Shown here piece after piece: positions 20,022 to 39,699 of a DNA stretch of 64,000 nucleotides. A program made the translations under genes and the position numbers. The notes under the pieces are model-generated. The model ran no database searches. It saw only the letters and a list, made by a program, of their open reading frames with translations, and was not told the DNA's origin. Numbering within the stretch: position 1 is the stretch's first letter; every line of letters begins with the position of its first letter. Origin of the DNA: Pelomonas sp. Root405 (GTDB taxonomy: Bacteria > Pseudomonadota > Gammaproteobacteria > Burkholderiales > Burkholderiaceae_C); the NCBI RefSeq assembly GCF_001425165.1, contig NZ_LMDU01000013.1, forward strand, positions 385,225 to 449,224, written 5' to 3'.

Positions 20022-21485
20022 CTAAACGGTGCCGCGGCGGGCTTCCAGCTCGATGCGGATCTCGTGCATGCGCTGCTCGGTCAGGAAGTAGCGCGACACC
20101 ACGACCAGCGCGATCAGCAGGCCGATGATGGGGATGCCCGAGAGGCAGACACGGATCAGGAAGATGGCGTCTTCACCCTGCACGGGCAGCTTGGCGTTGA
20201 AGCCCGTGAAGGCCAGCACCCAGCCCGAGGCGCTATTGCCCAGCGCCAGGCCGACCTTGCTGATCCACGAGCCGCAGGCCGCGAACGAGCCCTCGCGGCG
20301 CTGGCCGCTGGAGAGTTCGTCGTGGTCGATGACGTCGGCCATGGCGGAGCCGTAGATCGTCCAGAAGCCCGCGCCGATGAAGGCCACGCCGCCGCTGGCG
20401 AACAACTGCAGCCAGGGCAGCTGCGGGTTGTAGAAGAACCAGTCGCCGATGAATGCGGCGATGCCCAGCCAGAGCACGGTCATCAGCGCATTGCGCTTGC
20501 CCCAGCGCTTGGCCACCCAGCCCGCGAAGGCGATGCCGACGAGGCCACTGACCAGCCCGGCCACGCCCATCAGGGAGTTCCACTTCGTGGCCGCCACGAC
20601 GTCGCCGCCGCAGACGTAGTAGACGGTCGCGTAGTAGCCCAACAGCCCGACCATGGCGGTGGCCATGTTGTAGGTGAGCATGGTGCCCAACATCAGCCGG
20701 AAGGGCTTGTTCTTCAGCGTGCGGTACAGGGTGTCCTTGAACGGCACCCGCTGGCGGCTCTGGGCGACGAAGCTCTCGTAATAGCGCTCTCGCGTCAGCG
20801 AGAAGATGACGATGGCCAGGACCACCAGGATGCCGCCCAGGATGGCGGTGTAGACCTGGGCACCCAGCAGGATGTCGGGCTTGCCGCTGGCGTCGTGGAA
20901 GAAGTAGAGCGTCGTGAACTGCGCGGCGACGAACATGCCCAGCTCAGGAATCTTCTGGATCGCGTTCTTGATGGACATCACGCGCGTGCGCTCGTGGTAG
21001 CCCGGCGTCAGCTCGGCACCCAGGCTGTTCCAGGGCATCGCGAAGCAGCTCATGACCGGCGCGTAAAGGCAGGTCGAGACGAGGAGGAAGATGAAGTACT
21101 CGGTGTCCGTCCAGCCGCGGCCGACGGCGAACAGCAGCGGCAGGCCGATGCCCGTCAGGATGCCGCCGACGAGGATGAAGGGGCGACGGCGCCCCCAGCG
21201 GCTGCGGGTGTTGTCGGAGATCCAGCCGAACATCGCGTCGGACACCGCGTCCGCAAAGATCTTGATGCCCATGGCCATCGAGATCAGCTGCGGCGCCACG
21301 CCCAGGCCGATGTTGAAGACGTGGAAGACCAGGGACTGGTAGAGCCAGTGGCCCCACATGTCGTGGAAGGAGCCGAGGCCGAAGCCGACTTTCTGCGACG
21401 TCGGCACGCGGTCATTGGCCACCGGCGCGGGCGCCGCTGCAGGGCGCATCAAGGGCGCGGCGGCCCCAGCGGAATCGGCAAGCAC
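20022..21485 (-). CDS. GPH-family sugar:cation symporter (MFS)
   Basis: A 12-helix inner-membrane transporter of the glycoside-pentoside-hexuronide type. I choose GTG 21485, which has AAGGAG six bases upstream, over a GTG at 21515 without a ribosome site; this gives 487 residues. Family features are KVGFGLGSFHDMWGHWLYQS, DAVSDAMFGWISDNTRSRWGRRRPFIL and SCFAMPWNSLGAELTPGYHERTRV. It is followed after 24 bases by alpha-galactosidase, suggesting import of mannose-, glucose- or galactose-containing oligosaccharides. Upstream is a LacI-type palindrome (21515-21529), then the LacI gene on the same strand. Confidence 0.92.
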   Translation of the reverse strand: MLADSAGAAAPLMRPAAAPAPVANDRVPTSQKVGFGLGSFHDMWGHWLYQSLVFHVFNIGLGVAPQLISMAMGIKIFADAVSDAMFGWISDNTRSRWGRRRPFILVGGILTGIGLPLLFAVGRGWTDTEYFIFLLVSTCLYAPVMSCFAMPWNSLGAELTPGYHERTRVMSIKNAIQKIPELGMFVAAQFTTLYFFHDASGKPDILLGAQVYTAILGGILVVLAIVIFSLTRERYYESFVAQSRQRVPFKDTLYRTLKNKPFRLMLGTMLTYNMATAMVGLLGYYATVYYVCGGDVVAATKWNSLMGVAGLVSGLVGIAFAGWVAKRWGKRNALMTVLWLGIAAFIGDWFFYNPQLPWLQLFASGGVAFIGAGFWTIYGSAMADVIDHDELSSGQRREGSFAACGSWISKVGLALGNSASGWVLAFTGFNAKLPVQGEDAIFLIRVCLSGIPIIGLLIALVVVSRYFLTEQRMHEIRIELEARRGTV

Positions 21486-21514
21486 GTCTGTCTCCTTGGC
21501 CGCCTGAGGCAGCA

Positions 21515-21529
21515 CTTTTTAGTAAACAG
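21515..21529. promoter_or_regulatory. LacI-type operator upstream of GPH-GH27 operon
   Basis: CTTTTTAGTAAACAG is an odd-centred palindrome (6 of 7 base pairs, perfect core TTTA-G-TAAA). It starts 30 bases upstream of the GPH start, between the lacI-type gene and its neighbour. Its reverse strand matches the palindromes at 22738-22750 and 33335-33349. Confidence 0.75.
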
Positions 21530-21574
21530 ACGAATTTTTGTTCGACTCACGCGCGAACAAAAGCGGTGAAACAC

Positions 21575-22618
21575 CTAGGCCGGCTGGCGCTTCGGCTTGC
21601 GCGTTAGGGCTGGGGCGACCACTGGCGGGCGTGCGGCCATCGAGCTTTCTCGCACGACGAGCTCCACGGGCAGCGAGGCGTCGTTGGGTGCGATATCGCC
21701 TTCGATCAGGGCGCGCGCGGCCACGTTGCCGAGGGCTTCCTTGTCCATCTTCACGGTGGAGAGCGGCGGCTTGTTGCGTGCGGCAGCCTCGATGTCGTCG
21801 TAGCCGATGAAGCGGATGTCCTCGGGCACGCGCAGCCCCATCTCGTGGCAGAGCTCGATCGCAAAGATGGCCGTCGAGTCGTTGTAGGCGAAGACGGCAT
21901 CGGGCCGTTGGGGCAATGCCAGCAGGCGACGCATCGCGTCGCGGCCCGCCTCGCGGTAGTCCAGCGCCGGGTCCAGGGTGACCTCATAGTCGGGGTCGAA
22001 CAGGCGGCCCGCCTCGAACAGCGCGCGGCGGAAACCCTTGGCGCGCAGTGAGGTGGAGTAGTGCGCCAGCGGCCCGAAGATGGCCGCGATGCGCTGAGAG
22101 TCTCCGTCCAGCAGATGCCGCGTTGCCAGCCAGGCGCCCTGCAGGTTGTCATCGTTGACGCAGCGCACGCCGGGGTGGAAGTGGTCCACCAGCACCAGCG
22201 GCAGCTCGCAGCGACGCACGGCCTCCATGGCTTCCGGGTCGAAGTACCCCGCCCCCAGCAGTGCGTCCGCCTCGTGGCGGCGGACCTGGCCGGCGATATC
22301 GTCACCCGCCACCACCGACATGATGCTCAGCGGTACGCCGGCCTCGCGGCAGGCTGTCTCGGCGCCGTGCAGCACATAGGAATAGAACGGGTTGTTGGCC
22401 AGCGAGCCGAGGTGGCGGCTGTAGATGAAGAGCATGCGGCGCGGCTTGCCGGTGCGCAGTTTGGCCGTGTCATAACCCATCTTCTGCGCGACACCGAGCA
22501 CCTGGCTGCGAGTCTGCTCCGACAAGCCCGGCTGGCCCTTCAGCGCGCGGGACACCGTCCCGATGGACACGCCGGCGGCCTCGGCCAACTCGCGAATCGT
22601 CACTCCCTTGTCGGCCAT
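21575..22618 (-). CDS. LacI family transcriptional regulator, probable mannan-regulon regulator
   Basis: A 347-residue regulator. The N-terminal helix-turn-helix and hinge (VTIRELAEAAGVSIGTVSRALKGQPG, LSEQTRSQVLGVAQKMGY) precede a periplasmic-binding-protein-like sensor domain (DALLGAGYFDP, IAAIFGPLAHYSTSLRAKGF, AVFAYNDSTAIFAIELC, IRFIGYDDIEAAARNKPPLSTV). It sits between the GPH-GH27 operon (same strand) and GH1 (divergent). Candidate operators lie on both sides and again at 33335. The likely inducer is a manno- or gluco-oligosaccharide breakdown product. An imperfect palindrome 18 bases upstream of its own start suggests autoregulation. Confidence 0.94.
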   Translation of the reverse strand: MADKGVTIRELAEAAGVSIGTVSRALKGQPGLSEQTRSQVLGVAQKMGYDTAKLRTGKPRRMLFIYSRHLGSLANNPFYSYVLHGAETACREAGVPLSIMSVVAGDDIAGQVRRHEADALLGAGYFDPEAMEAVRRCELPLVLVDHFHPGVRCVNDDNLQGAWLATRHLLDGDSQRIAAIFGPLAHYSTSLRAKGFRRALFEAGRLFDPDYEVTLDPALDYREAGRDAMRRLLALPQRPDAVFAYNDSTAIFAIELCHEMGLRVPEDIRFIGYDDIEAAARNKPPLSTVKMDKEALGNVAARALIEGDIAPNDASLPVELVVRESSMAARPPVVAPALTRKPKRQPA

Positions 22619-22636
22619 GGCCCGAACTCCAGCTGT

Positions 22637-22652
22637 TGTTTAGCGCTGCACA
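22637..22652. promoter_or_regulatory. Even-centred LacI-type operator upstream of the lacI-type gene
   Basis: TGTTTAGCGCTGCACA pairs at 6 of 8 positions around a central C/G and lies 18 bases upstream of the regulator's start codon. The same GCTAAACA half-site recurs at the GH2 gene start (33213-33220). Candidate autoregulatory site. Confidence 0.5.
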
Positions 22653-22737
22653 TCGGCGGCGATTGTGTCATCGGCGCTCGAGTACGCCCTGTGCATCGGC
22701 GTCCCGCCGACCCCGGGGCAAAACCTAGGCTCAACAT

Positions 22738-22750
22738 TGTTCACTAAACA
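22738..22750. promoter_or_regulatory. LacI-type operator upstream of GH1 gene
   Basis: TGTTCACTAAACA (5 of 6 pairs around a central C), 50 bases before the GH1 start, in the divergent lacI/GH1 interval. An A/T-rich stretch that could hold the -10 region follows it. Confidence 0.7.
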
Positions 22751-22800
22751 TTTGTTGTTGCATAGAATATTCCGTTACCCAACCCTAGCCGCCGCGCGAT

Positions 22801-24186
22801 ATGGACCTGAACTCGCCTCCCAACTCCCTGGCCGACCTCGTCGCCCCGCCCGCTGGCTCACCGATGCGCCGCCGAGATTTCGTCTTCGGCGCGGGCACCT
22901 CGTCCTACCAGATCGAAGGCGCCGCCCACGCGGACGGCCGGCTCGAATCCATCTGGGACCGCTTCTGCGCCACGCCCGGCAAGGTGCTGCGCGGCGAGAA
23001 CGGTGATGTGGCCTGCGACCACTACAACCGGCTGGACGAAGACCTGGACATCCTGAAGCGCCTGGGCGTGGACGCCTACCGCTTCTCCATCGCCTGGCCT
23101 CGCGTCATGGACGAGGCCGGCAAGCCCAACGCGCGCGGCATCGACTTCTACAAGCGCCTGCTGGACGGCTTGGGCGCGCGCGGCATCAAGGCCTTCGTGA
23201 CGCTCTATCACTGGGACCTGCCGCAGTATCTGGAAGACCGCGGCGGCTGGCTGAACCGCGACACGGCTTATCGCTTCGCCGAGTACGCGGACCTGATGAG
23301 CCGCGAGCTCGCCGGCCATGGCGACGTGGCCGCCTGGACGACGCACAACGAGCCCTGGTGCTCGGCCTACCTGGGCTATGGCGATGGCCACCACGCGCCT
23401 GGCCTGAAGAACAACCGTTGGGCCGCGCAGGCCATGCACCACCTGCTGCTGGGCCACGGCCTGGCGCTGCCCATCCTGCGCGCCAACGCGCCGCAGGCGC
23501 TGCACGGCATCGTCATCAACTGCGCGCCGGGCTATGCCGACAAGGACACGGCCGAGGACCGCGACGCTGCGTCTCTGTTCGAGACCTACCAGAACCGCTG
23601 GGTGCTCGACCCGCTGCTCAAAGGCGAGTACCCCGCAGACCTGTGGCGGCTGTGGAAGGGTTGCGAGCCGCTGGTGCTGGACGGCGACATGGACATCATC
23701 AAGCGTCCCATCGACTACCTCGGCATCAATTACTACAGCCGCGCCGTGCTGGCGTCCAAGGGGCCGGACACCATCGACTGGGTGCGCCACCCCGAGGTGG
23801 AGCGCACGACGATGGACTGGGAGGTCTACCCGCAAGGCCTGCAGGACCTGTTTGAGGCGTTCAAGCGCGACTACGCCAACCTGCCGCCGCTCTACGTCAC
23901 GGAGAACGGCATGTCGAGCCATGACACCGTCGAAGGCGGCGAGGTCAACGATCTGCAGCGCCAGGCCTATCTGAAGGGCCACTTCGCGGCCTGCTCGCGG
24001 GCGATGGACAACGGCGTGGACGTGCGCGGCTACTTCGTCTGGTCGCTGATGGACAACTTCGAATGGGCCTTCGGTTACGAGCGCCGCTTCGGCCTCGTGC
24101 ATGTGGACTTCGAGACGCAGCAGCGCACGCTCAAGCGCAGCGCGCTCGCCTATGCGGATTTCCTGAAAGAGCGCGCAGCCGGCTGA
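22801..24186 (+). CDS. Beta-glucosidase family GH1
   Basis: Hydrolyses beta-linked disaccharides and short oligosaccharides from the non-reducing end (beta-glucosidase, possibly also beta-mannosidase or beta-galactosidase activity). The 461-residue product shows FVFGAGTSSYQIEGAA, RFSIAWPRV, THNEPWCSAYLGY (acid/base Glu184), INYYSR and YVTENG (nucleophile Glu368), with the C-terminal WSLMDNFEWAFGYERRFGLVHVD. There is no signal peptide, so it is cytoplasmic and acts on imported oligomers. It has its own LacI-type operator and is convergent with the second halogenase gene, leaving only three bases. Confidence 0.96.
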   Translation: MDLNSPPNSLADLVAPPAGSPMRRRDFVFGAGTSSYQIEGAAHADGRLESIWDRFCATPGKVLRGENGDVACDHYNRLDEDLDILKRLGVDAYRFSIAWPRVMDEAGKPNARGIDFYKRLLDGLGARGIKAFVTLYHWDLPQYLEDRGGWLNRDTAYRFAEYADLMSRELAGHGDVAAWTTHNEPWCSAYLGYGDGHHAPGLKNNRWAAQAMHHLLLGHGLALPILRANAPQALHGIVINCAPGYADKDTAEDRDAASLFETYQNRWVLDPLLKGEYPADLWRLWKGCEPLVLDGDMDIIKRPIDYLGINYYSRAVLASKGPDTIDWVRHPEVERTTMDWEVYPQGLQDLFEAFKRDYANLPPLYVTENGMSSHDTVEGGEVNDLQRQAYLKGHFAACSRAMDNGVDVRGYFVWSLMDNFEWAFGYERRFGLVHVDFETQQRTLKRSALAYADFLKERAAG

Positions 24187-24189
24187 AGC

Positions 24190-25722
24190 TCAGCGAGTGC
24201 CGACCAGGCGGCCCAGATAGGCCGCGTGGTCGGGCATGTCATCCACCGTCTTGGAGATGGCCATGTGCAGCCGCTTGAAGTGCTCCCGCAGTGTCGCCTC
24301 GTCCACCTGCGCCAAAAGCGGGTGCAAGGCTTCGGGCCTCATGCCCAGGCCGAGGTAGAGCGAGTACCACGAGTCCTCGCCGAAGCTGTCCCGGTCGAGG
24401 ACGACGACGCGGCCGTTGCGACGGAAGTTGTCCATCTGGTGCGCCAGCGTGTCCGGGATGGGCATGGCCTTGCAGTAGCGCCAGAACTCGCTGTCGTCGC
24501 GCGCCGTCTCCTTGTAGTGCAGGATGATGAAGTCGCGGATGGACTCGTACTGCCGCGTCATGCGGCGGTTGTATTCATCGACCAGATGCGGCTCGCAACT
24601 GCGGTCGGGGAACAACTCCACCAACGCACTGACACCATGGATGACGAGGGACAGGCTGGTCGATTCCAGCGGCTCCAGGAAGCCTGAGGCCAGGCCCACG
24701 GCCACGACGTTCTTCTCCCAGATGCGCTTGCGCATGCCGGTCTTGAAGCGCAGCTGCCGCGGCTCGCCCTGGGGTGCGCCGTCAAGGTTGCTCATCAGCA
24801 CGCGCCCGGCTTCCTCGTCGCTGGTGTAGCCGCTGCAATAGACATGGCCGTTGCCCGTTCGGTGCTGTAGCGGTATACGCCATTGCCAGCCCGCGCTGCG
24901 CGCCGTGGACGTCGTGTACGGCGTGAGCGGCACGACCTTGTCACAGGGCGCGGCCTGGGCGCTGTCGCAGGGCAGCCAGTGCGTCCAGTCGTCGTAGCCG
25001 GCCTTCATCACACCTTCAATCAGCAGCGCACGAAAGCCTGAACAGTCGATGAACAGGTCGCCCTCGATGCGCCGGCCATCAGCCAGGGTCACGGCGGTGA
25101 CAAAGCCATCGCCGGGGCGCAGCGACACATCGACGATGGTGCCCTCCTCGCGCTTGACGCCGCGCGCCAATGCGTAGTCGCGCAGGAAGTTCGCGTACAG
25201 ACCGGCGTCGAAGTGGAAGGCGTAGGAATACGAGTTGGCCGCCGACGGCGGGCCGCCTTCGGGCGGCACGAAACGATTGCGCTGCGCCATCACGCTGGCG
25301 GTCGACCAGTCCTCGTAGCTGGGCATGCCGCCCGTGCGGTTCAGCCGCATCCAGTGCGCCACTGACGAGCGGTTCACGATGGGCGGGCCGAAGCCGCCGA
25401 AGCCGTGGAAGAAGCGGTTGCCGATGTGGCCCCAGTCCTTGAACTCGATGCCGAGCTTGAAGCTAGCCTGGGTCTTGCGCATGAACTCGGCGTTGTCGAG
25501 CTCCAGCGCGTCGTTGTAGTAGCGGATGCTGGGCAGCGTGGCCTCACCGACACCGACGGTGCCGATGTCCGCCGACTCAACCAGCACGATTTCGCAGCCG
25601 ACGGGGTTGGCCGGGCCGCCCGGCTGCGTGCCGAACATCTGGCTGAGCGGCGCGGCGGTCATCCAGCCGGCGCTGCCCCCGCCCACGATGACGATGCGGC
25701 GAATGGCCTGTTCGTTGCTCAT
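24190..25722 (-). CDS. Flavin-dependent tryptophan-halogenase-like protein (second of tandem pair)
   Basis: A 510-residue homologue of PrnA-type FADH2-dependent halogenases. It has the FAD motif GGGSAGW (14-20), a lysine at 89 (ASFKLGIEF) in the position of the catalytic Lys79 of PrnA, the signature WQWRIP (279-284, the WxWxIP motif) and GFLEPLES (347-354). ATG 25722 overlaps the upstream stop by one base (TGATG). A stretch of about 50 residues around GVKREEGTIVDVSLRPGDG is identical to the upstream paralogue, so this is a tandem duplication. Such proteins are often found beside TonB receptors in glycan-using Proteobacteria. A natural substrate is not established, and no flavin reductase is adjacent. 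Confidence 0.9.
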   Translation of the reverse strand: MSNEQAIRRIVIVGGGSAGWMTAAPLSQMFGTQPGGPANPVGCEIVLVESADIGTVGVGEATLPSIRYYNDALELDNAEFMRKTQASFKLGIEFKDWGHIGNRFFHGFGGFGPPIVNRSSVAHWMRLNRTGGMPSYEDWSTASVMAQRNRFVPPEGGPPSAANSYSYAFHFDAGLYANFLRDYALARGVKREEGTIVDVSLRPGDGFVTAVTLADGRRIEGDLFIDCSGFRALLIEGVMKAGYDDWTHWLPCDSAQAAPCDKVVPLTPYTTSTARSAGWQWRIPLQHRTGNGHVYCSGYTSDEEAGRVLMSNLDGAPQGEPRQLRFKTGMRKRIWEKNVVAVGLASGFLEPLESTSLSLVIHGVSALVELFPDRSCEPHLVDEYNRRMTRQYESIRDFIILHYKETARDDSEFWRYCKAMPIPDTLAHQMDNFRRNGRVVVLDRDSFGEDSWYSLYLGLGMRPEALHPLLAQVDEATLREHFKRLHMAISKTVDDMPDHAAYLGRLVGTR

Positions 25723-27275
25723 CACTTGGTCATCTCCATCGCAGGAGCCTTGACATGCTTGTTGATGAAAGCGCCGTGGTCAGGCATGCCCTCCACGGTC
25801 TTGGCGATGGCTGTGCGCAGGCGCTCGAAGTGGCCGCGAAGCGCGTGCTCGTCGACCTGCCCGAGCAGCGGGTCGTGGCGCTCCGGCGAGAGCCCCAGGC
25901 CGAGGAACAGCGACACCCAGGAGGGCTCGGCAAAGCTGTCGGGGTCCAGGATGGCAACGCGGCCGCTGCGGCGAAAGACCTCGATCTGGTGCGTCAAGTC
26001 GTCGGGGATGGGCATGGCCGCGCAGTAGCGCCAGAACTCGCTGTCATCGCGCTTCGTGAGCTTGTAGTGCAGCACGATGAAGTCGCGGATGGACTCGTAC
26101 TGCCGGGTCATGCGGCGGTTGTACTCGGCCGCGAGATGAGCATCGCAGCGGCGGTCCGGCAACAACTCGATCAGGCGGCCGATGCCGTCCATGATGAGCT
26201 GGATGCTGGTGGATTCCAGCGGCTCCAGAAAGCCCGACGAAAGGCCGATGGCGACGACGTTCCTGTCCCAGGCCTTCTTGCGCATGCCGGTCTTGAAACG
26301 CAGCTGGCGCGGGTTGCCCTGCGCGGCGCCGTCCAGGTTGCGCATCAGCACCTCGCCGGCCTCCTCGTCGCTGACGTAGCCGCTGCAGTAGACATGCCCG
26401 TTGCCAGTGCGGTGCTGCAGCGGGATGCGCCACTGCCAGCCGGCGCTGCGTGCGGTGGACGTGGTGTAGGGCGTCAACGGCTCGACGCGGGCGCAAGGCA
26501 CTGCCTGAGCGCTGTCACAGGGCAGCCAGTGACTCCAGTCCTCATAACCCGCCTTGCACACGCCTTCGATCAGCAGCGCGCGGAAGCCCGAGCAGTCGAT
26601 GAACAGGTCGCCCTCGATGCGCCGGCCGTCGGCCAGTGTTACGGCGGTCACGAAGCCGTCGCCGGGGCGCAGCGACACGTCGACGATGGTGCCCTCCTCG
26701 CGCTTGACACCCCGCGCCATCGCATAGTCGCGCAGGAAGGCCGCATACAGGCCGGCGTCGAAATGGAAGGCGAAGGAGTACGCATTGGCGGCCGACGCCA
26801 CGTCCCCGTCCGGCGGGACGAAACGGTTGCGCATCGCCATCACCGTGGCGGTGGACAGGTCTTCGTAGCCCATCCCGCCAGCCTGGCCATGCACACGCAA
26901 CCAGTGGGAAACGGAGGAGCGATTCAGGATGGCCGGCCCGAACTCGCCAAAGCCGTGGAAGAAGCGGTTGCCGAGGTGGCCCCAGTCCTTGAATTCGATG
27001 CCGAGCTTGAAGCTCGCCTGCGTCTTGCGCATGAACTCCGCGTTGTCGAGCTTGAGCGAGTTGTTGTAGTAGCGGATGGTGGGCAGCGTGGCCTCGCCGA
27101 CACCGACCGTGCCGATCTCGGGTGACTCGATCAGCACGACCTCGCAAGTCGCGGCGTGGTCGCCGCCGCCCATCAGCTGACCCAGCGGCGCAGCAGTCAT
27201 CCACCCTGCGGTGCCGCCGCCGACGATGACGATGCGGCGCAGCGGTCCGCCGTCAGGCATGCGTTGTTTCTCCAT
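25722..27275 (-). CDS. Flavin-dependent tryptophan-halogenase-like protein (first of tandem pair)
   Basis: A 517-residue paralogue of the next gene. I choose ATG 27275, with GAGGG upstream, over an in-frame TTG at 27296. It carries the same landmarks: GGGTAGWMTAAP, VGVGEATLPTIRYYNNSLKLDN, ASFKLGIEFKDWG with the catalytic-type Lys, GWQWRIPLQHRTGNGHVYCSGY with WxWxIP, and SGFLEPLESTS. It begins 97 bases after the stop of the TonB receptor on the same strand, but a strong terminator intervenes, so expression with the receptor would need read-through or its own promoter. The reaction is presumably halogenation or another FADH2-dependent oxidation. The substrate is unknown. Confidence 0.9.
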   Translation of the reverse strand: MEKQRMPDGGPLRRIVIVGGGTAGWMTAAPLGQLMGGGDHAATCEVVLIESPEIGTVGVGEATLPTIRYYNNSLKLDNAEFMRKTQASFKLGIEFKDWGHLGNRFFHGFGEFGPAILNRSSVSHWLRVHGQAGGMGYEDLSTATVMAMRNRFVPPDGDVASAANAYSFAFHFDAGLYAAFLRDYAMARGVKREEGTIVDVSLRPGDGFVTAVTLADGRRIEGDLFIDCSGFRALLIEGVCKAGYEDWSHWLPCDSAQAVPCARVEPLTPYTTSTARSAGWQWRIPLQHRTGNGHVYCSGYVSDEEAGEVLMRNLDGAAQGNPRQLRFKTGMRKKAWDRNVVAIGLSSGFLEPLESTSIQLIMDGIGRLIELLPDRRCDAHLAAEYNRRMTRQYESIRDFIVLHYKLTKRDDSEFWRYCAAMPIPDDLTHQIEVFRRSGRVAILDPDSFAEPSWVSLFLGLGLSPERHDPLLGQVDEHALRGHFERLRTAIAKTVEGMPDHGAFINKHVKAPAMEMTK

Positions 27276-27310
27276 CGGACGCCCTCTCGTTGTCAACGGG
27301 ACAGTAACCC

Positions 27311-27342
27311 AAAAAAAAGGCCTGGCGCCGCAGCGCCAGGCC
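27311..27342 (-). terminator. Rho-independent terminator of TonB receptor gene
   Basis: A perfect 10-bp stem (GGCCTGGCGC / GCGCCAGGCC, loop CGCA) followed on the minus strand by eight T (27311-27318), 30 bases beyond the receptor stop. Confidence 0.92.
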
Positions 27343-27372
27343 TGTGTGGAACCGGGACAAACCCGGTTTCGA

Positions 27373-30300
27373 TCAGAAGTTCAGACGTGCGGACACCGAG
27401 TAGCGCGGGCCCGAAACGAACCAGCTCCGACCCGTGAAGCCGATGTGCTGCTGCATCAACTGTTTGTAGATCGCGTCGGTCAGGTTCTGACCTTCGAACG
27501 CGAACGTCAGGTTGTTGTTGAACCTGTACTGCACGCCGAGGTCGAGCTGGCCGAAGTCATCCGTCCAGATCGGCAGGCCGAGCGGCATGTTGTTGCGTCC
27601 GTACTGCGGGCTTTGCGGATTGGCATTCAGGCCGTTGGTCTGGTTCGGGCCGGTGTTGTCCGGGAAGGCCACGCCGTTCATGTACTTGCCACGCCAGGCA
27701 TAGGCAATGCGCGCCGAGATCGGGCCGTGGTCGTACAGGATCGCCAGGTTGGCGGCCTTGCGCGACAGGTTGGGCAGCGGGTGGTCACCGTAGGACTGGC
27801 CGTTGGTGTCGCAACCGTTGACGAACAGGCTCAGATTCCGGCCGTCACTGGCGCTGCTGCACCACTCGTTGCCACCGACGGCGTTGTAGCGCTTCTGCTT
27901 GCTGTCAACGTAGGTCACGTTGGCCTGCACACCCAAGCCAGCGAGCAAACCAGGCAGTCCGTTGAAGTAGTGCTGAACTGCAAGCTCCACGCCGCGCGCC
28001 CAACCCTTGGCACCGTTCACCTGCGTCGAATAAGCGAACTCGTACGGCTTGCCTGTGTTGTCAACCTCCGTCAGGATGCCCACCTGATTGACGATCACGT
28101 CCTTCAGGCGCTTGTTGAACACAGCCATCGTGACCGAGCTTGCCTTGTCGAGATACCACTCGGCCGACACGTCGAACTGATCCGACTTGACCGGCTTCAA
28201 CATCGGGTTGCCCAAGGCCTGACCGCGGTTGCGCAGATCGTCCACATAGTTGGTACGCACCTCCGGCGTCACCGTCCGATCAACGATCGTACGAACGGTG
28301 GCGCTGCCAGCATCCAAGATCACGTTGGGCTGCAGTGCGCTGAGGTCGGGGCGTGCGACCGCCTTCGCATACGCGAATCGCAACTGCATCTTGTCGTTGA
28401 ACTTCCAACGCAGATTCAGGCTAGGCAGAACGTCGGTGTAGCTGTTCTTGATCTCAATTGGCCGCCGGTAGCCGGTGAACACAGGAATCGGACCTCCGAT
28501 CAATGGGCCGGTCACCGCATCGGTATCGTCATAGTTCAGCGACTGGTAGCCGGTCGAGTTGTAGTTGGTGTTGACGACACGAAGACCCACGTTGCCGTCG
28601 ACAGGCACGTTCCACTCGTCGAACCCGAAACGCAGCTGCGCATACGCAGCCTTTGTGGTTTCGTGCTGCTCGTTGTCGCGCGCCGAGACCGTGCCGGGAG
28701 CGACCGGGGTGAACGCCGGGGCACAACTGTTGCCGGGATTGCCGCCCTTCGAGATCTTCTCGGCCTTGTACTCCTCGCACAGCGTGGTGTAGTAGCTGTG
28801 CAGTTCAGAGTAGGAGGTGGGGTAGTTCGCGGCCACCGCCATCGTCGGCAGCACAAGCGCTGCGACGTTGTTCTTGCCGTTCATGAAGTTGTTGAACGGC
28901 TTGACCTGCGTTTGACCGCCGAAGCGCGACAGGTAGGCCAGGCTCTTGATCGGGTGCCAGTCCCAATTCTGGCCAATGGCGCCCTGGTCGAACTCTGCGG
29001 ATTGCCAAGTCTGCGTGACCGCCTGCCAGTTGTACCAGCGGGGCGATTGATTGCTCACGTCACGGTCGGTGAGTCGCAGGCCGAAGCGCAAGTCTTGGAG
29101 CACCGGGTGGTCAAAGTTGTACCTGACGTCACCCTTCCACGCCTTTTGCTTGGCTTTGCTCTCTGACAGCCTCTCCATGGTGAAGCCCCAGTAGTACTTG
29201 GACGGGTCGGCCAGGTAAGCCTGGTCCGCAGCATCCAAAACCAGGCGCGGCAATTCGCCGGTCAAGTCCAAGGTTTCCTTGGGCATGTTGATAGCGGTCG
29301 CCACGGTCGAGTCGAAGGTGCCGCTCCTGGACTCAATGAACTGGAAGTCGTTGGCGATCCGCCAATTGGAACTCGGCGTCCAAACCAGATTGAAGGTCGT
29401 TTCCTTCGTGTCCGAACTGCTTGTGGAAAAGCGCGTGTTCGCATTGAAGGGAATGCCGCCCTTCGCAGGATCCCTGAGCGTGCCCGTCAGCAGTGCACCG
29501 TTGCTGCCCCAAGTCGCATTCGACACGGTCGACGAATACGGATCTGCCTGGCTGGCGATGGAGCTTTCATCCCAGTAGAAGTCGTACTTGGAACGGAAAT
29601 GGGTCAGTGCCGCCTGCAGTGTGTCCTTCTTCCATTGCGCTGCCACATACGTGCCCTTGCGCGAGCGGTCGAACGCAAGCGTCTGCCAACCCAACGCCTT
29701 GGGGAACCAATGGTTTTCAGCGGTAGGGAGGTAGTAGGCGTTGTTGGTATCGCTGTCCTTGTTCCAGCGAGCGACTTCCCGGAAGTACGGATCCGCGGAC
29801 ATGCCGTCGGTGCGGGTCGAGCTCTTGGAATTGGCCATGTGGACCAGCAGGCCGACCTTGCCGATGTCGGTGTTCCAAGTGTTGGACAGCAGGCCCGAAA
29901 CGGTCGGCTTCTGGTCGTCGCGCAGCACGTTCTTCGTGAGCGACACGCCCAGCCCGGCCTTGAAGCCGTTGTAGTCAAACGGCAGCGCGGTGCGCAGGTT
30001 CACGAGGCCACCGATGGCGCCCTCGATCTGTTCGGCGGACGGGTTCTTGTAGACGTCGACGCCAGCCATCAGCTCGGGCGGCACGTCCTCGAAACTCAGA
30101 CCACGGCCGCCGTTTGCGGAAAAGCTTTCACGGCTGTTCAACTGGGACGACACATAGGTCAGGCCGCGGATTAGCACGCCCGAACCTTCGACCGAGAAGC
30201 GAGCCGGGTCGCCGCGGGCCATCACACGGTCCATCGTCACGCCGACGATGCGTTGCAGCACCTCGCTGACGGAGCGGTCGGGCAGCTTGCCGATGTCGTC

Positions 30301-30522
30301 CGCCACGACCGAGTCAACGATCTCGTCGGACTCCTGTTTGAGCTTCTGGGCCGACTGCAGTGCGGCCCGCTGGCCCGACACCACGACCGTCTCCAACTGC
30401 TGTGACTTGGCCGGTGCAGACGCTGCCGCAGCGGGCGCCTGCTGTGCCATCGCCGGCATGGCCAAGACCATCAAGGCCTGGGCTGCCGCCAATGACAAGG
30501 TTGTCTGTTTGAAATGTCTCAT
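27373..30522 (-). CDS. TonB-dependent outer-membrane receptor, large
   Basis: A 1049-residue receptor starting at ATG 30522 with AGGAG ten bases upstream and signal peptide MRHFKQTTLSLAAAQALMVLAMPAMA. A TonB-box-like QQLETVVVSGQRAAL is followed by a plug domain (VADDIGKLPDRSVSEVLQRIVGV, FEDVPPELMAGVDVYKNPSAEQIEGAIGGLVNLRT) and a barrel ending in SARLNF. It belongs to the same broad Xanthomonas/Caulobacter receptor class as the gene at 5101-7953. It lies between the halogenases and GH2 beta-mannosidase, all on the minus strand, so a mannan-derived oligosaccharide is the likely ligand. Confidence 0.93.
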   Translation of the reverse strand: MRHFKQTTLSLAAAQALMVLAMPAMAQQAPAAAASAPAKSQQLETVVVSGQRAALQSAQKLKQESDEIVDSVVADDIGKLPDRSVSEVLQRIVGVTMDRVMARGDPARFSVEGSGVLIRGLTYVSSQLNSRESFSANGGRGLSFEDVPPELMAGVDVYKNPSAEQIEGAIGGLVNLRTALPFDYNGFKAGLGVSLTKNVLRDDQKPTVSGLLSNTWNTDIGKVGLLVHMANSKSSTRTDGMSADPYFREVARWNKDSDTNNAYYLPTAENHWFPKALGWQTLAFDRSRKGTYVAAQWKKDTLQAALTHFRSKYDFYWDESSIASQADPYSSTVSNATWGSNGALLTGTLRDPAKGGIPFNANTRFSTSSSDTKETTFNLVWTPSSNWRIANDFQFIESRSGTFDSTVATAINMPKETLDLTGELPRLVLDAADQAYLADPSKYYWGFTMERLSESKAKQKAWKGDVRYNFDHPVLQDLRFGLRLTDRDVSNQSPRWYNWQAVTQTWQSAEFDQGAIGQNWDWHPIKSLAYLSRFGGQTQVKPFNNFMNGKNNVAALVLPTMAVAANYPTSYSELHSYYTTLCEEYKAEKISKGGNPGNSCAPAFTPVAPGTVSARDNEQHETTKAAYAQLRFGFDEWNVPVDGNVGLRVVNTNYNSTGYQSLNYDDTDAVTGPLIGGPIPVFTGYRRPIEIKNSYTDVLPSLNLRWKFNDKMQLRFAYAKAVARPDLSALQPNVILDAGSATVRTIVDRTVTPEVRTNYVDDLRNRGQALGNPMLKPVKSDQFDVSAEWYLDKASSVTMAVFNKRLKDVIVNQVGILTEVDNTGKPYEFAYSTQVNGAKGWARGVELAVQHYFNGLPGLLAGLGVQANVTYVDSKQKRYNAVGGNEWCSSASDGRNLSLFVNGCDTNGQSYGDHPLPNLSRKAANLAILYDHGPISARIAYAWRGKYMNGVAFPDNTGPNQTNGLNANPQSPQYGRNNMPLGLPIWTDDFGQLDLGVQYRFNNNLTFAFEGQNLTDAIYKQLMQQHIGFTGRSWFVSGPRYSVSARLNF

Positions 30523-30605
30523 CCTGGTTTGCTCCTCTTTGGTGGGAAACATTCGACCCTTGCGGGCTCATGTCGCGGTTGCAGGCACATGACCTCAACC
30601 TGTTT

Positions 30606-30619
30606 TGGTAACGGTAACA
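30606..30619. promoter_or_regulatory. Candidate operator: tandem GGTAAC upstream of TonB receptor
   Basis: TGGTAACGGTAACA holds two perfect GGTAAC copies and pairs at 5 of 7 positions as a palindrome. It lies 84 bases upstream of the receptor start, in an A/T-richer patch. It differs from the GTTTACTAAAC sites, so a second regulator may act here. Confidence 0.45.
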
Positions 30620-30694
30620 ACTATCAAGCCCCGACCACATCGGGAAATCAACTACAGGGGATTCACTCATTCCGCCTGGGGTTGCACTCCTCTA

Positions 30695-33208
30695 TCAAAA
30701 CAAGTCGATCCGTCGCGTGGCGTGGTCCACGGCAACGCATTCCAAGGCGCTTGGTAGCGCTATCTGTGATTTGATGCCGCGCGGCGCACCGGGCATCAGG
30801 TCGATGAAGTTGTCCGAGAGCGCCAAGCCGTTGCCCGAGAGCCACAAGCCTTTCACGGGCCTGTCGCAGCTGAGCTGCAGCTCCTGCCCTTGGACGGTGA
30901 TCTCGATGCGCGCACCACCCAGCCGGTAGAACTTGAACGGCTCCGTCCAGGCGCAGTCGCGCGCGAGCTCGGCACCTTCGGCGTCGACCGCGCACAGTTC
31001 GGCCACCACCGGTTCAGCGAAAGCAGGCAACGGCTGCGTGGCCTCGACACAGCAGGCGGCCGGCACGCCTTGCGGCAACTGCGCCGCGGCCAGCTGGCGG
31101 CCATCCATCGCGAACAAGCGCAGCCGCAGCGTGACCGCCATGTCCGCCATGCCGCCGTTCATGACCGCGAGCCGCGCACCACCCTCTTCCAGCCGCACGG
31201 CAACCGCCAGCTTGCTGAGCGCGCGGCGAACTGCATGCCAAGCCGGCTTCACCGTGCCGCTCGAATCGATCAGTGCCCAGCTCGTCACCGGCCAGCAGTC
31301 ATTGAGCTGCCAAACCAGCGCGCCACCCACCGCGCGGGCGCCCGGCTGCTGCCAGCGACGGCGGAAGTCCTGGTAGGCCACGCGCATGGCCTCGGCCTGC
31401 ACGAACTGCGTGGCGTAGACGTGATCCGCCAGCGTGCTCCCCACCCGCAGGTTGTCGGCCAGGTAGACGGACAAACGGCGGTGGCCGTCCGGCCCGGCCG
31501 CGGAGCCGGCCTTGTTGTGCCACTGCACCGTGCGGCTCTCCGGAAAGCGCTCTTCCTCAGGCAGCACCGATTCGAACAATGCCAGCGAGGGATGCGACTG
31601 CATGCCGAACTCGCTGACGAAGCGGGCCTGCACATCGCCATAGCGCTGATAGGGCAGCATCTGCTGGTGCCATACCTCCCAGCTGTGGCGGTCGCCCACC
31701 GTGGCGTCGGACGACTTGGCATCGCCGGGTGTGAATGGGCTGCCGGGCCAGTAGATGCCGTCCGGATCCAGCGCTGCGCACACCTCGGGCAGCAGCCGCT
31801 CGTAGATCGCCCGCGCCTCGAAGCGTTCAGCTGGCACGCCCGGGCCGGCCAGGCCGAGCGACTCGGCAATCATGTAGTCCTCGTTGTTGCCGCACCAGAG
31901 CGCCAGGCAGGCGTGATGGCGCAGCCGCTTCACCGCGGCTTCAGCCTCGGCCCGCACGCTGGCGAGGAAGGCCTCGTTGGCCGGGTAGATGCCGCAGGCG
32001 AACATGAAGTCCTGCCACACCAGGATGCCTTGCTCGTCACAGGCCTCGTAGAAGGCTTCGTGCTCGTAGATGCCGCCGCCCCAGACTCGCAGCATGTTCA
32101 TGTTGGCCGCAGCCGCCTGACCGACTCGCTCGCGATAGCGGGCGGGCGAGATGCGCTCCAACAGGTTGTCGTCGGGAATCCAGTTGGCGCCGCCTGCAAA
32201 AAGATCCTGCCCGTTGACCTGCAAGTGAAAGCTGCTGCCGGCCTCGCCGTCCACCGGCGCCTGCACCAGGCGGACGGTACGCAGGCCGATGCGGCGGCTG
32301 TCCCGGGCCAGCTCACGCTCGCCATCCAGCACGCGCGCCACCAGCGTGTAAAGCGGCTGGCCGCCCAGGTCGCGCGGCCACCAAAGCTGGGCGTCGGCCA
32401 GGTTCAAGGTCGCCCGGGCGACGCCGGCCGGCACGGTCTGCGCCGCGACGCTGCGGCCATCCGGGCCGAGCAGCTCGAAGGCGCAGAGCAGCCCGGCGCC
32501 GGCACCGTGCAAGCGTGCCGAGACTTCCAGCGTCGCCTGCCGGCCGGCCAAATCCACGTCGCTGCGGCACTGCAGCTCGTCGATACGCGCCGCCCAGCTG
32601 TGCCGCCGCACCGGTCGCCAGGGGCCACTGACCAGCAGCTCGGGGCCCCAGTCCCAGCCGAAGTGGTACTGCGCCTTGCGCGCATGCAGCCGGGCGCTGT
32701 CACCGTTCCAGAGCTGGCGCTTGCCGTGCACCGCTTCCACCTCGCGGGCGCTGGCGAGCGGCGGCTCGAAGCACAGCAGCAATTCGTTGCGGCCCGCCCG
32801 CAGGTGCCGGCGCACATCCACACGGTGCGGCACGAACATGTTGTCCGATGCAAACAGCCGCTCGCCGTTCAGCCACACGGTGCAATAGGTGTCCAGGCCT
32901 TCAAAGACCAGCTCCTCGTGCGGCGCCAGCTCGCCTTCGACGTCGAAGCCCAGGCGCCAGATCCAGCGGCGCTCGCCCACCCAGCGCACATCGGCCTCGT
33001 TGCGGCCGTAGAAGGGGTCGGGAATGCGGCCGGTGGCCAGCAGCGCGCCATGGGCCGTGCCGGGCACGGCGGCAGGCAACCACTCGGCCGCGTCAAGGGC
33101 GGCCAGGGCCGCGCCGGCGGGCACTTCCGCCACTTGCCAGCCTTCATGGAGATCGATCAGGTGTTCGGAGATCACTGCGCTCAAGGTCCTCGCGCCGCCG
33201 CACTGCAT
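30695..33208 (-). CDS. Beta-mannosidase, GH2
   Basis: Releases mannose from beta-1,4-manno-oligosaccharides. The 837-residue product has the GH2 layout: N-terminal jelly roll (WVGERRWIWRLGF, FEGLDTYCTVWLNGE, FGWDWGPELLVSGPWRP), an immunoglobulin-like domain, then a TIM barrel with LRVWGGGIYE, ALWCGNNE (acid/base Glu443) and FVSEFGMQS (nucleophile Glu533). FGWDWGP and the GGGIYE/CGNNE spacing favour beta-mannosidase over beta-galactosidase. The start could be ATG 33208 or GTG 33175, the latter with AGGA upstream. There is no clear signal peptide, so it is probably cytoplasmic. A GCTAAACA half-site overlaps the region just before ATG, and a perfect LacI-type palindrome lies 127 bases upstream. 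Confidence 0.93.
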   Translation of the reverse strand: MQCGGARTLSAVISEHLIDLHEGWQVAEVPAGAALAALDAAEWLPAAVPGTAHGALLATGRIPDPFYGRNEADVRWVGERRWIWRLGFDVEGELAPHEELVFEGLDTYCTVWLNGERLFASDNMFVPHRVDVRRHLRAGRNELLLCFEPPLASAREVEAVHGKRQLWNGDSARLHARKAQYHFGWDWGPELLVSGPWRPVRRHSWAARIDELQCRSDVDLAGRQATLEVSARLHGAGAGLLCAFELLGPDGRSVAAQTVPAGVARATLNLADAQLWWPRDLGGQPLYTLVARVLDGERELARDSRRIGLRTVRLVQAPVDGEAGSSFHLQVNGQDLFAGGANWIPDDNLLERISPARYRERVGQAAAANMNMLRVWGGGIYEHEAFYEACDEQGILVWQDFMFACGIYPANEAFLASVRAEAEAAVKRLRHHACLALWCGNNEDYMIAESLGLAGPGVPAERFEARAIYERLLPEVCAALDPDGIYWPGSPFTPGDAKSSDATVGDRHSWEVWHQQMLPYQRYGDVQARFVSEFGMQSHPSLALFESVLPEEERFPESRTVQWHNKAGSAAGPDGHRRLSVYLADNLRVGSTLADHVYATQFVQAEAMRVAYQDFRRRWQQPGARAVGGALVWQLNDCWPVTSWALIDSSGTVKPAWHAVRRALSKLAVAVRLEEGGARLAVMNGGMADMAVTLRLRLFAMDGRQLAAAQLPQGVPAACCVEATQPLPAFAEPVVAELCAVDAEGAELARDCAWTEPFKFYRLGGARIEITVQGQELQLSCDRPVKGLWLSGNGLALSDNFIDLMPGAPRGIKSQIALPSALECVAVDHATRRIDLF

Positions 33209-33334
33209 GGGCGCTAAACATTAATTTGTTGCGCATTCTGTTTCTCTTAAGAAATCCCGGCGATCAGGGATAGCACCGATTAAATAAGGGGGCGTGTCAC
33301 TATTGCGCGTCCCTTGGCTTGCGGATAATCAATT

Positions 33335-33349
33335 TCGTTTACTAAACGA
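33335..33349. promoter_or_regulatory. Perfect LacI-type operator between GH2 and ABC transporter operon
   Basis: TCGTTTACTAAACGA is a perfect 15-base odd-centred palindrome, 26 bases before the GTG start of the binding-protein gene and in the divergent interval with GH2. It shares the core with 21515-21529 and 22738-22750. It is the strongest copy. Confidence 0.85.
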
Positions 33350-33374
33350 TTGACGTATTGCCGCCGTTCGAGCC

Positions 33375-34598
33375 GTGCCTCACACCCTTGCCAAGCTCGC
33401 CATCTCGCTATGCCTGACCGTCGGCTGCGGTCAGGCGCTGGCCGCCCGCCTGGTCATCTGGATGGTGGGCGACGACAAGACGCCACGCGTGATGCAGCCA
33501 GCCGTCGAGGCGTACCGCGCCCGCCACCCCGGCGTGGTCATCGAAGTGCGGGACGTGCCCTGGGCCGACGCGATGACCAAATACTCCGCGGCGCTGGCCA
33601 GCAAGCGGGGCCCCGATCTCGTCACCGGCAGCACGTCCTACGCCATCGCGCTCGGTGCCAAGGGCGCACTGGTCGACCTGAACGAGGCCGCGCCCGATCT
33701 CGCCCAGCAGTTGGAGCAACACGCCAACCCCGGCGCGCTGCGGGCCATCCGCAGTGCTGACGGCCGGCTCTATGGCGCACCCTTCGACATGCACGTGCAG
33801 CTGCAGTACTACCGCAGCGATCTGGCTGCGAACGCGCCTGCCGATTGGGAGGGTTTCATGGGCTCGGCCCGCGCTTTGCGCACGCAAGGCCACGGGTTTG
33901 CGCAGCAGTGGGGCAACACAAGCTGGCTGGGCTTCTATCCTTATCTGCGCCAAGCCGGCGGTGCGGTCTATGACGCGACTTGTAGCCGCGCCGTCATCGA
34001 CACTCCGGAAGCGACGCGCGCGCTGACCTACTACGCCCGTCTGTACCGCGAGCTCAAGGCGCCCACCGATGGCTGGCCCGACGCCGACGGCGGCCTGGCG
34101 AGTGGCGCCTACGGCCTGATGCAGTCGGGCACCTGGCTGCTGTCGCGCATGGACATGGTGCACAAATCGCTGGTGGGCAAGTGGGCCGCCGCGCCGCTGC
34201 CGACCGGCCCAACGGGCAAGCGCACGGCGGTGCTGGGGGGCACGGTGCTGGCCATCACGCGCTTCTCGCCTAACCGCGCCCTCGCGCTCGACTTCATGCG
34301 CACCGTCTACCAGCCCGAGGTCACGCGGCGCATGGCCGAGGCGGCGCTGCAGCACGGCGGCATGTGGCTGCCCTCGGGCCGGCAGGACCAGATCGCCAGC
34401 CTGCCCCTGCCCTTTCGCGAGGCGCTGCTCACCCAATTGGCCGACGCCGAGGGCCCGCCGCCCTGCCCGGCCTGGATGCGGCAGGACTACATCGTCACGC
34501 GCGCCGTGCAGCGCGTCGTGCTCGCGGGTGGCGATGCGCAGACCGAGCTTAGCCGCGCCGCTGCCGTGATGAATCGCGCGCTGGGGGTCTCCCGATGA
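33375..34598 (+). CDS. ABC transporter sugar-binding protein
   Basis: A 407-residue extracytoplasmic binding protein of the MalE/family 1 type. It begins at GTG 33375 with signal peptide MPHTLAKLAISLCLTVGCGQALAA. The mature start RLVIWMVGDDKTPRVMQPAVEAY, then RDVPWADAMTKYSAALASKRGPDL, LMQSGTWLLS and NRALALDFMRTVYQPE are family-like. It is the first gene of a packed plus-strand operon (binding protein, two permeases, esterase, two GH5), so the ligand is probably a manno- or gluco-oligosaccharide. The stop overlaps the next start by four bases. The ribosome site is weak. Confidence 0.9.
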   Translation: MPHTLAKLAISLCLTVGCGQALAARLVIWMVGDDKTPRVMQPAVEAYRARHPGVVIEVRDVPWADAMTKYSAALASKRGPDLVTGSTSYAIALGAKGALVDLNEAAPDLAQQLEQHANPGALRAIRSADGRLYGAPFDMHVQLQYYRSDLAANAPADWEGFMGSARALRTQGHGFAQQWGNTSWLGFYPYLRQAGGAVYDATCSRAVIDTPEATRALTYYARLYRELKAPTDGWPDADGGLASGAYGLMQSGTWLLSRMDMVHKSLVGKWAAAPLPTGPTGKRTAVLGGTVLAITRFSPNRALALDFMRTVYQPEVTRRMAEAALQHGGMWLPSGRQDQIASLPLPFREALLTQLADAEGPPPCPAWMRQDYIVTRAVQRVVLAGGDAQTELSRAAAVMNRALGVSR

Positions 34599-35479
34599 TC
34601 TGGCGCCGCCACGGCCGCGACATCCTGCTGGTCGCTCCCTTCTTCGCCCTCTTCGGCCTCTTTGTCGCCTGGCCTGTACTGCGGTCGGCCTGGCTGAGCT
34701 TCACCGACTACCACGCCACCGACGAGCCGGTCTTCGTGGGCTTGCGCAACTACGCCGAACTTTTCGCCGACGAGCGCTTCTGGACCGCGCTGGGCAACAC
34801 CACCGCCTACATGGCCTCGGTGTCGATCATCGCAGTGCTGCTTGGCTTGGTGCTGGCGCTGAACTTCGGCAGCAACTCGCGCCTGCACCAATGGGTACGT
34901 GTGGCGTTCTTCCTGCCTGCCGTCGCCGGCGGCGTGGGTGCCATCTCGGCCTGGAAGTGGCTGGCCAACTCCGAAGCCTATGGTCTCTTCAACAGCATCC
35001 GCGCCGCATTCGGCCTGGACCCGGCGCGCTTCCTCGGCGACCCGCAATGGACGCTGCCGATGCTGGTGCTCGTCGGCGTGTGGTCGGTGCTCGGCTACAA
35101 CCTCGTCATCTTCGTGGCCGGGCTGCGCGCCATTCCCGAAGAGCTGTACCAGGCCGCGCGCCTGGATGGCGCCTCGCCCTGGCAGCAACTGCAGCACATC
35201 ACGCTGCCCAACCTGCGGCCGACGCTGGTCTACGTCAGCGTGACCGGCATGGTGGCCAGCTTCCAGGTTTTCTACGAGCCGTATTTGCTCTACGGCGCGG
35301 TCGATACGCTGGGCGGCCCGCTGGACTCGGCGTTGATGCTGGTCACCTACCTCTTCGACCGCGGCTTCCGACACCTCGACCTGGGCCTGGCTTCGGCCGC
35401 CGCCTGGGTGCTCACGACCATCCTGTTCGGCCTGACCTGGCTGAACCTGAAGTTCATCGGCAGGGAGGGCATGCGATGA
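34595..35479 (+). CDS. ABC sugar transporter permease, MalF-like
   Basis: A 294-residue inner-membrane permease with six predicted helices. The cytoplasmic EAA loop reads EELYQAARLDGASPWQQLQHITLPNLRP, the contact site for the ATPase. ATGA overlaps on both sides (34595-34598 and 35476-35479) show translational coupling. It pairs with the next gene to form the sugar translocation pore. Confidence 0.94.
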   Translation: MIWRRHGRDILLVAPFFALFGLFVAWPVLRSAWLSFTDYHATDEPVFVGLRNYAELFADERFWTALGNTTAYMASVSIIAVLLGLVLALNFGSNSRLHQWVRVAFFLPAVAGGVGAISAWKWLANSEAYGLFNSIRAAFGLDPARFLGDPQWTLPMLVLVGVWSVLGYNLVIFVAGLRAIPEELYQAARLDGASPWQQLQHITLPNLRPTLVYVSVTGMVASFQVFYEPYLLYGAVDTLGGPLDSALMLVTYLFDRGFRHLDLGLASAAAWVLTTILFGLTWLNLKFIGREGMR

Positions 35480-36354: not shown

Positions 36355-36355
36355 C

Positions 36356-39678: not shown

Positions 39679-39699
39679 CCCCTTTTGAGGAGACCACCC

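What the first reader, a model, noticed from the sequence alone, without database searches (positions are those of the whole stretch)
21515..33349. A shared palindrome links four transcription units into one mannan regulon
Three odd-centred palindromes with core GTTTACTAAAC lie at 21515-21529, 22738-22750 and 33335-33349 (the last perfect over 15 bases). They stand respectively before GPH-GH27, before GH1, and between GH2 and the ABC-esterase-GH5 operon. Even-centred half-sites with GCTAAACA sit at the lacI-type gene (22637-22652) and the GH2 start (33213-33220). A single LacI protein is encoded in the middle. The mix of odd and even spacing might distinguish strong from autoregulatory sites.
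Basis: partly seen in the sequence, partly recalled or inferred. Interest (0 to 1): 0.72.

Follow-up and report, generated by a model that had tools for sequence, protein, structure and literature searches.

The report
LacI operators of a glucomannan regulon
A short mirror-image DNA word conserved across Roseateles-type bacteria most likely lets one sugar-sensing repressor control a set of plant-glucomannan-eating genes; the regulon itself is ordinary, but the repressor's shortened hinge and its unusually arranged half-sites are worth a bench test.

Summary
The three odd-centred palindromes are real and look functional. Only 10 places in 5.81 Mb match GTTTANTAAAC within one mismatch; three lie in this 12 kb (scan P=0.0014). 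At orthologous loci site 1 is kept in 15 of 15 genomes read, site 2 in 15 of 15, site 3 in 17 of 17. The word stands beside 8 of 11 more distant relatives of this LacI and 0 of 17 other LacI proteins, so the encoded LacI very probably binds it. It is the known EbgR-type LacI operator; the class is not new.

Corrections: the 'even-centred' sites are not palindromes in relatives. At GH2 and at site 2 the conserved unit is CTAAACA-N6/N5-TGTTGC, found almost nowhere else in 20 genomes (27 of 28 matches). Before lacI only one half-site is conserved. A distant secreted GH5 gene carries TAAACA-N4..9-TGTTTAG (14 of 14 matches), and a 66%-identical LacI sits in a second mannan locus. The substrate looks like glucomannan.

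This LacI subfamily lacks four hinge residues (26 of 26 rows; 0 of 17 outgroup rows), which may permit several half-site geometries, as in CytR. That last step, like binding itself, is inference.

The parts
21517..21527 (.). Site 1, odd operator TTTTAGTAAAC before the GPH transporter-GH27 unit (minus strand)
   Evidence: present within one mismatch in 15 of 15 genomes read
20022..21515 (-). GPH/MFS_2 sugar transporter; the ORF start touches site 1, the likely start codon is GTG near 21485 behind AAGGAGA (read by eye), which would put site 1 in the promoter/leader
   Evidence: Pfam MFS_2 5.4e-60
18783..19997 (-). GH27 alpha-galactosidase
   Evidence: Pfam Melibiase_2 1.4e-75
21575..22618 (-). 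LacI-type regulator, 347 aa, hinge four residues short
   Evidence: Pfam LacI, Peripla_BP_3; hinge alignment
22637..22644 (.). Single half-site TGTTTAGC in the lacI leader
   Evidence: TGTTTAG in 15 of 15 genomes, TGTTTAGC in 13 of 15; partner half not kept
22738..22750 (.). Site 2, odd operator TGTTCACTAAACA; overlaps the -35 of the only sigma-70-like promoter found in 21400-33500 (TTCACT-17-TAGAAT, 22740-22768)
   Evidence: identical in 15 of 15 genomes
22756..22761 (.). TGTTGC five bases from site 2 (CTAAACA-N5-TGTTGC)
   Evidence: N5 in 15 of 15 genomes, with TGTTTGC in G303 and TGTTAC in G312
22801..24186 (+). GH1 glycosidase (beta-glucosidase-like); a PfkB kinase gene precedes it in relative G030 (L065)
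30695..33208 (-). GH2, beta-mannosidase-like, first gene before a TonB receptor and two halogenase-like genes
33214..33232 (.). GH2-side element CTAAACA-N6-TGTTGC, next to CAGAAT (-10-like by eye, minus strand, 33240-33235)
   Evidence: N6 in 16 of 17 genomes; nearly unique in 20 genomes
33263..33280 (.). Second conserved partial palindrome (many relatives: TCGGGGATATTCCCGA), between the two divergent promoters
33335..33349 (.). Site 3, perfect odd operator TCGTTTACTAAACGA, seven bases before its 11-mer core from GATAAT (33324-33329)
   Evidence: kept in 17 of 17 genomes
33375..40725 (+). SBP, two ABC permeases, CE2/GDSL esterase, GH5a, GH5b
27373..30552 (-). TonB-dependent receptor in the GH2 unit

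Best explanation
The 347-residue LacI protein is a local repressor of a glucomannan utilisation regulon. Without inducer its dimer sits on the 13-bp odd operator TGTTTA-N-TAAACA: over the -35 of the GH1 promoter, and just behind -10-like words of the GPH-GH27 and ABC-esterase-GH5 promoters. The GH2-TonB receptor promoter and the promoter of a distant secreted GH5 gene carry everted half-site pairs (halves pointing away from each other) just behind their -10-like words. A sugar released from glucomannan by the pathway lifts the repressor. Shown: the sites, their conservation, the near-uniqueness of the paired words, their company with this LacI subfamily, the short hinge. Inferred: promoter assignments made by eye, binding, repression, inducer, and that the same protein reads the everted pairs.
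For: Three of 10 genome-wide sites lie in the locus. Site 1 15/15, site 2 15/15, site 3 17/17 genomes; palindrome windows are 97-100% conserved where the aligned promoter stretches average 61-70%. The four genus genomes with neither a LacI nor a GH2 orthologue (G306, G307, G310, G313) hold 1-2 sites against 5-11 in the 14 with the LacI. A PWM hit of at least 16 bits lies in the roughly 4-kb stretch (gene plus 1.5 kb each side) of 8 of 11 more distant subfamily lacI genes (7 of 10 without G314, whose site was in the training set), 0 of 17 outgroup lacI genes, 0 of 55 base-shuffled stretches. The word equals the EbgR-type operator of lactic acid bacteria (PMC2329647, passages) and occurs in the E. 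coli ebg region. CTAAACA-N4..8-TGTTGC: 27 of 28 matches in 20 genomes are at site 2 or GH2; reversed control 0. TAAACA-N3..10-TGTTTAG: 14 matches in 20 genomes, all 14 before the secreted GH5.
Against: No binding data. The palindrome is not enriched genome-wide. 3 of 11 distant subfamily lacI genes (L027, L028, L031) show no site; the 17 outgroup rows are not independent of each other. lacI itself has only one half-site, so autoregulation is uncertain. Of 14 extra-locus stretches fetched from relatives, 7 have the site inside a reading frame and look like chance. Other words in these promoters are as conserved as the palindromes. The reversed control of the GH5 pattern gives 10 matches in 20 genomes, so its weight rests on all 14 falling at one gene. 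In G000 the paralogous LacI could bind the same word.
Confidence: 0.82

Rival explanations
1. Another regulator (for example the 66% identical LacI paralogue in the C12 mannan locus) is the real reader of these palindromes, and the local LacI binds something else.
For: The paralogue has similar words before its own gene and before a symporter gene; the DNA-binding helices are alike.
Against: At E <= 1e-85, 13 of the 14 genus genomes with the LacI orthologue have no 66%-type paralogue (G300 has only a 50% identical second copy), yet carry the palindromes.
Confidence: 0.08
2. CTAAACA-N5/6-TGTTGC and the everted GH5 element belong to a different factor or to an RNA hairpin in the 5' leader, not to LacI.
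For: TAAACA...TGTTTA can pair as an RNA stem with a loop of 4-9; in G156, G303 and G308 neighbouring arm bases change together (by eye). A second conserved palindrome at the GH2/ABC promoter shows that other factors may act there.
Against: The halves equal the operator half-site and do not change themselves in the 14 GH5 elements; at site 2 the element shares its first half with the palindrome; TGTTGC lies upstream of the -10 at site 2 and, on the GH2 strand, downstream of the -10-like word at GH2.
Confidence: 0.35
3. The palindromes are chance or neutral shared ancestry.
For: Counts are below the reversed control in 17 of 20 genomes.
Against: Near-complete conservation inside diverged DNA, presence beside distant LacI relatives, placement at promoters.
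Confidence: 0.02

Closest known systems
EbgR-like LacI regulators (E. coli EbgR, lactic acid LacR/GalR; PMC2329647)
   Same: Odd operator with a single central C or G, nearly letter for letter (L. delbrueckii LacR O2 TTGTTTAGTAAACGG; TTTTACTAAAC in the E. coli ebg region); atypical hinge; a longer stretch after the hinge as in EbgR.
   Different: 29% identity to EbgR, and RbsR scores best of five E. coli members compared; lacks the insertion before helix 3; hinge four residues short instead of one; predicted glucomannan, not galactoside, targets.
ManR-type LacI regulons for mannose and mannosides (PMC4052901)
   Same: Local LacI control of mannoside use.
   Different: That survey lists five ManR groups (passages only); their operators were not seen. 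1251 of its 1303 LacI regulators have even motifs.
CytR (PMC3454398)
   Same: LacI-family protein with half-sites at varied spacing and order; linker described as flexible and unstructured in the title of a paper it cites.
   Different: CytR acts by anti-activation with CRP; its hinge is not shortened; flexible spacing here is inferred from DNA alone.

Membership tests
LacI/GalR family | LacI HTH plus periplasmic-binding-like sensor domain | tested here: met
   Pfam LacI 2.5e-11, Peripla_BP_3 2.8e-30
LacI/GalR family, canonical majority | Full-length hinge helix and operator with central CG | tested here: not met
   Four-residue deletion in 26 of 26 subfamily rows, 0 of 17 outgroup rows; operators have no central CG; model has helix 51-54 only and pLDDT under 50 at 53-59 (weak)
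EbgR-like subfamily | Odd operator with single central C or G | tested here: met
   compared with PMC2329647 and E. coli ebg DNA
EbgR-like subfamily | Conserved insertion before helix 3 | tested here: not met
   EbgR has two extra residues there, this LacI none
EbgR-like subfamily | Lack of the hinge Ala and Leu | tested here: inconclusive
   Part of the region is deleted; which residues align depends on gap placement
CytR-like relaxed spacing | Protein binds half-sites at several spacings | not testable with these tools
   Only DNA evidence: N1 inverted, N4-N9 everted
Mannan/glucomannan regulon | Target genes encode the degradation pathway | tested here: met
   By family only: GH27, GH2 beta-mannosidase-like, CE2, GH5, GH1, transporters; activity not tested

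The most novel reading that the evidence does not exclude
A LacI subfamily of Burkholderiales has lost four hinge residues and with them the fixed even operator. One and the same protein reads TGTTTA-type half-sites as a compact 13-bp inverted repeat, as everted pairs with 4 to 9 bases between, and as composite three-half-site operators, giving each promoter of one regulon its own geometry.
Probability: 0.33. Interest if true: 0.62.

Novelty: new variant of a known kind. Interest (0 to 1): 0.42.

Why it matters
It gives a ready-made set of natural operators, checked in 17 genomes, for asking how hinge length sets operator geometry in LacI proteins, a question so far argued from CytR and EbgR-like cases. 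It also assigns a likely regulator and targets to a glucomannan locus of environmental Betaproteobacteria, including a secreted GH5 far from the locus.

Tried and rejected
Single cases remain: TTTTAGATAAAC before the secreted GH5 in G000 and TGTTTATCTAAACA on the GH2 side in G314. Other listed places, such as GTTTAGAAAAAC a few kb beyond lacI in G299 and G300, were not followed.

Helical phasing between the lacI half-site and site 2 (72-125 bp): P=0.017 over 15 genomes, 0.11 on distinct values, so not claimed.

Extra-locus palindrome matches in relatives: 14 stretches fetched (L087-L100). By eye: 7 inside reading frames and probably chance (L087-L090, L092, L096, L099), 4 before the secreted GH5 (L091, L093, L095, L097; in L097 a mechanical antisense frame covers the site), 1 before an MFS gene (L094, likewise), 2 unresolved (L098, L100).

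The second palindrome as a global regulator site: 12 of 20 genomes have one copy with at most 2 mismatches, each at this locus; 4 further matches have 3 mismatches; G000, G156, G308 and G314 have none at that level; the reversed control gives 18 matches.

Literature: searches for a mannan or glucomannan LacI of Roseateles or Burkholderiales with this operator showed none in their listed results; only part of the matching papers is listed and only open-access papers are held. GH5 subfamily numbers, which I could only recall, are left out.
Full report
What is there. The window lies in a genome (G000, 5.81 Mb) whose 14 named relatives at this LacI are Pelomonas, Roseateles and some Burkholderiales MAGs (one labelled Methylotenera). 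Around one lacI-type gene (21575-22618, minus) stand GPH-GH27 (minus), GH1 (plus), GH2-TonB receptor-two halogenase-like genes (minus) and ABC transporter-CE2 esterase-GH5-GH5 (plus). The three odd palindromes are at the stated places.

Chance. GTTTANTAAAC with at most one mismatch occurs at 10 places in the genome, three of them here; the chance that any 3 of 10 random points fall within 11.8 kb is 0.0014. The count itself is not raised: 17 of 20 genus genomes have fewer matches than the reversed control. The stronger evidence is conservation.

Conservation. Orthologous loci were read in 13 further genus genomes with a LacI orthologue of 82-91% identity, in G084 (another genus, 76%), and in part in G309 and G314. 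Site 1 is present within one mismatch in 15 of 15 genomes (G314 has another gene order beside lacI). Site 2 is TGTTCACTAAACA in 15 of 15; G314 has TTTTACTAAAC there. Site 3 is present in 17 of 17, all genomes in which searches found the GH2 gene. In the alignments the palindrome windows are 97-100% conserved while all columns average 61-70%; some neighbouring windows, described below, are as conserved. Among the 20 genus genomes, the 14 with the orthologue hold 5-11 matches and G314 (59% LacI) 3; G306, G307, G310 and G313, with neither LacI nor GH2 orthologue, hold 1 or 2. G309 also holds 2; it has the GH2/ABC part with site 3, but its contig ends before lacI would be reached.

Link to this LacI. 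In the stretch of gene plus 1.5 kb on each side, 8 of 11 more distant relatives (47-67% identity) have a strong site, 7 of 10 if G314, whose site was in the matrix, is left out. None of 17 LacI proteins at 33-36% identity has one (several of these are near-copies of each other), nor any of 55 base-shuffled stretches. L027, L028 and L031 are the misses.

Where the sites sit. The only sigma-70-like promoter that the scan finds in 21400-33500 is TTCACT-17-TAGAAT at 22740-22768; shuffles give 1.2 on average, but this one has its -35 in site 2. Site 3 lies seven bases behind GATAAT (CATAAT in most relatives). Site 1 lies before GPH, whose mechanical GTG start touches the site and whose real start is probably near 21485 (by eye). 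In 12 of 15 genomes about 1 kb lies between site 2 and GH1; in the one tested (G030) this is a PfkB kinase gene. These placements suit a repressor (inference).

The even-centred sites. TGTTTAG lies 14-21 bases from the lacI start in 15 of 15 genomes (TGTTTAGC in 13), but what follows differs, so the even mirror in the window is accidental. At GH2 the conserved word is CTAAACA-N6-TGTTGC (16 of 17 genomes; TGTTAC in G084; absent in G314, which has TGTTTATCTAAACA), and the same word with N5 is attached to site 2 (15 of 15, with TGTTTGC in G303 and TGTTAC in G312). G238 has in addition a full GTTCACTAAAC on the GH2 side. CTAAACA-N4..8-TGTTGC has 28 exact matches in 20 genomes, 27 at these two places and one elsewhere in G304; the reversed control has none. 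The distance from the GH2 half-site to the centre of site 3 is 128-129 bp in 14 genomes, 127 in G308 and 126 in G084, although the middle part of the 14 has only 47% mean pairwise identity (range 19-94%); lacI-site 2 distances run from 72 to 125.

Beyond the locus. A secreted GH5 gene is found elsewhere in 15 of 20 genomes. Eight of 15 carry the odd palindrome about 170-215 bases upstream. Fourteen of 15 carry TAAACA-N-TGTTTAG behind a -10-like word, N being 4 (six), 5 (one), 8 (three) or 9 (four); G314 is the exception. Over 20 genomes this pattern occurs 14 times, all 14 at this gene; the reversed control occurs 10 times. Halves that stay while spacing changes suggest a flexible reader; an RNA stem is the rival. 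In the window genome a second locus, GH2b-TonB receptor-GH26-AGE epimerase-PfkB-LacI2, has related words before lacI2 and before a sodium-solute symporter gene.

What kind of regulator. The operator matches that of EbgR-like LacI proteins (PMC2329647, passages: single central C or G; loss of hinge Ala and Leu coincides with loss of the central CG), and E. coli's ebgR-ebgA region has TTTTACTAAAC twice and TTTTAGTAAAA once. PMC4052901 (passages) counts even palindromes for 1251 of 1303 LacI regulators. PMC2978694 (passages) ties the conserved hinge Leu to the central CG. The protein here lacks four hinge residues in 26 of 26 subfamily rows and 0 of 17 outgroup rows; in the same kind of alignment EbgR lacks one, and LacI, PurR, CytR and RbsR of E. 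coli none. The AlphaFold2 model shows helix only at 51-54 and pLDDT below 50 at 53-59; it is middling (mean 75; the other four 56-72) and no control was run, so this is weak. CytR has half-sites with varied spacing (PMC3454398, passages). I propose, but have not shown, that the short hinge permits both the compact operator and the everted pairs.

Substrate. Among solved structures GH2 is closest to beta-mannosidases (5n6u, 1.9e-138), GH5a and GH5b to endoglucanases, GH1 to beta-glucosidases, the binding protein weakly to Lin1841. With GH27 and CE2 this fits acetylated galactoglucomannan (inference). The inducer is unknown.

Noticed in passing
window 33263-33280; e.g. G302:C37:260841-260861: Second conserved partial palindrome (TCGGGGATATTCCCGA in relatives, degenerate in the window) in the GH2/ABC divergent promoter, about -43 from the GH2 start and -64 from the ABC start by eye; both promoters lack a clear -35, so an unknown activator may sit there.
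   Followed up: partly
window 24190-27296: Two tryptophan-halogenase-like genes next to a TonB-dependent receptor inside a sugar locus; related genes in either orientation in relatives.
   Followed up: no
G000:C12:647759-664421 (L063, L101): A second mannan locus with paralogous GH2 and LacI and a GH26 mannanase, plus a sodium-solute symporter and DUF5060/GH5 genes with GTTTAATAAAC upstream.
   Followed up: partly
L126, L128, L125, L102 upstream of secreted GH5: In G156, G303, G308 and G000 the everted pair is extended into a longer inverted repeat with a third half-site; in the first three, arm bases change together between genomes.
   Followed up: partly
G000:C2:60964, G301:C10:34605, G299:C12:473681 and others: An even-spaced word GTTCAG(G/A)TAAAC lies about 1.3-3 kb downstream of the secreted GH5 in each of the 10 genomes whose listed places allow a check; it may belong to a neighbouring gene or leader.
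   Followed up: no
L094:6299 (G301): A strong odd site (31 bits) stands about 130 bases before an MFS transporter gene in one relative.
   Followed up: no
L100:2289-6019 (G301): A kinase-like frame beginning like the PfkB gene of L065, near a weaker site; possibly a further sugar locus.
   Followed up: no
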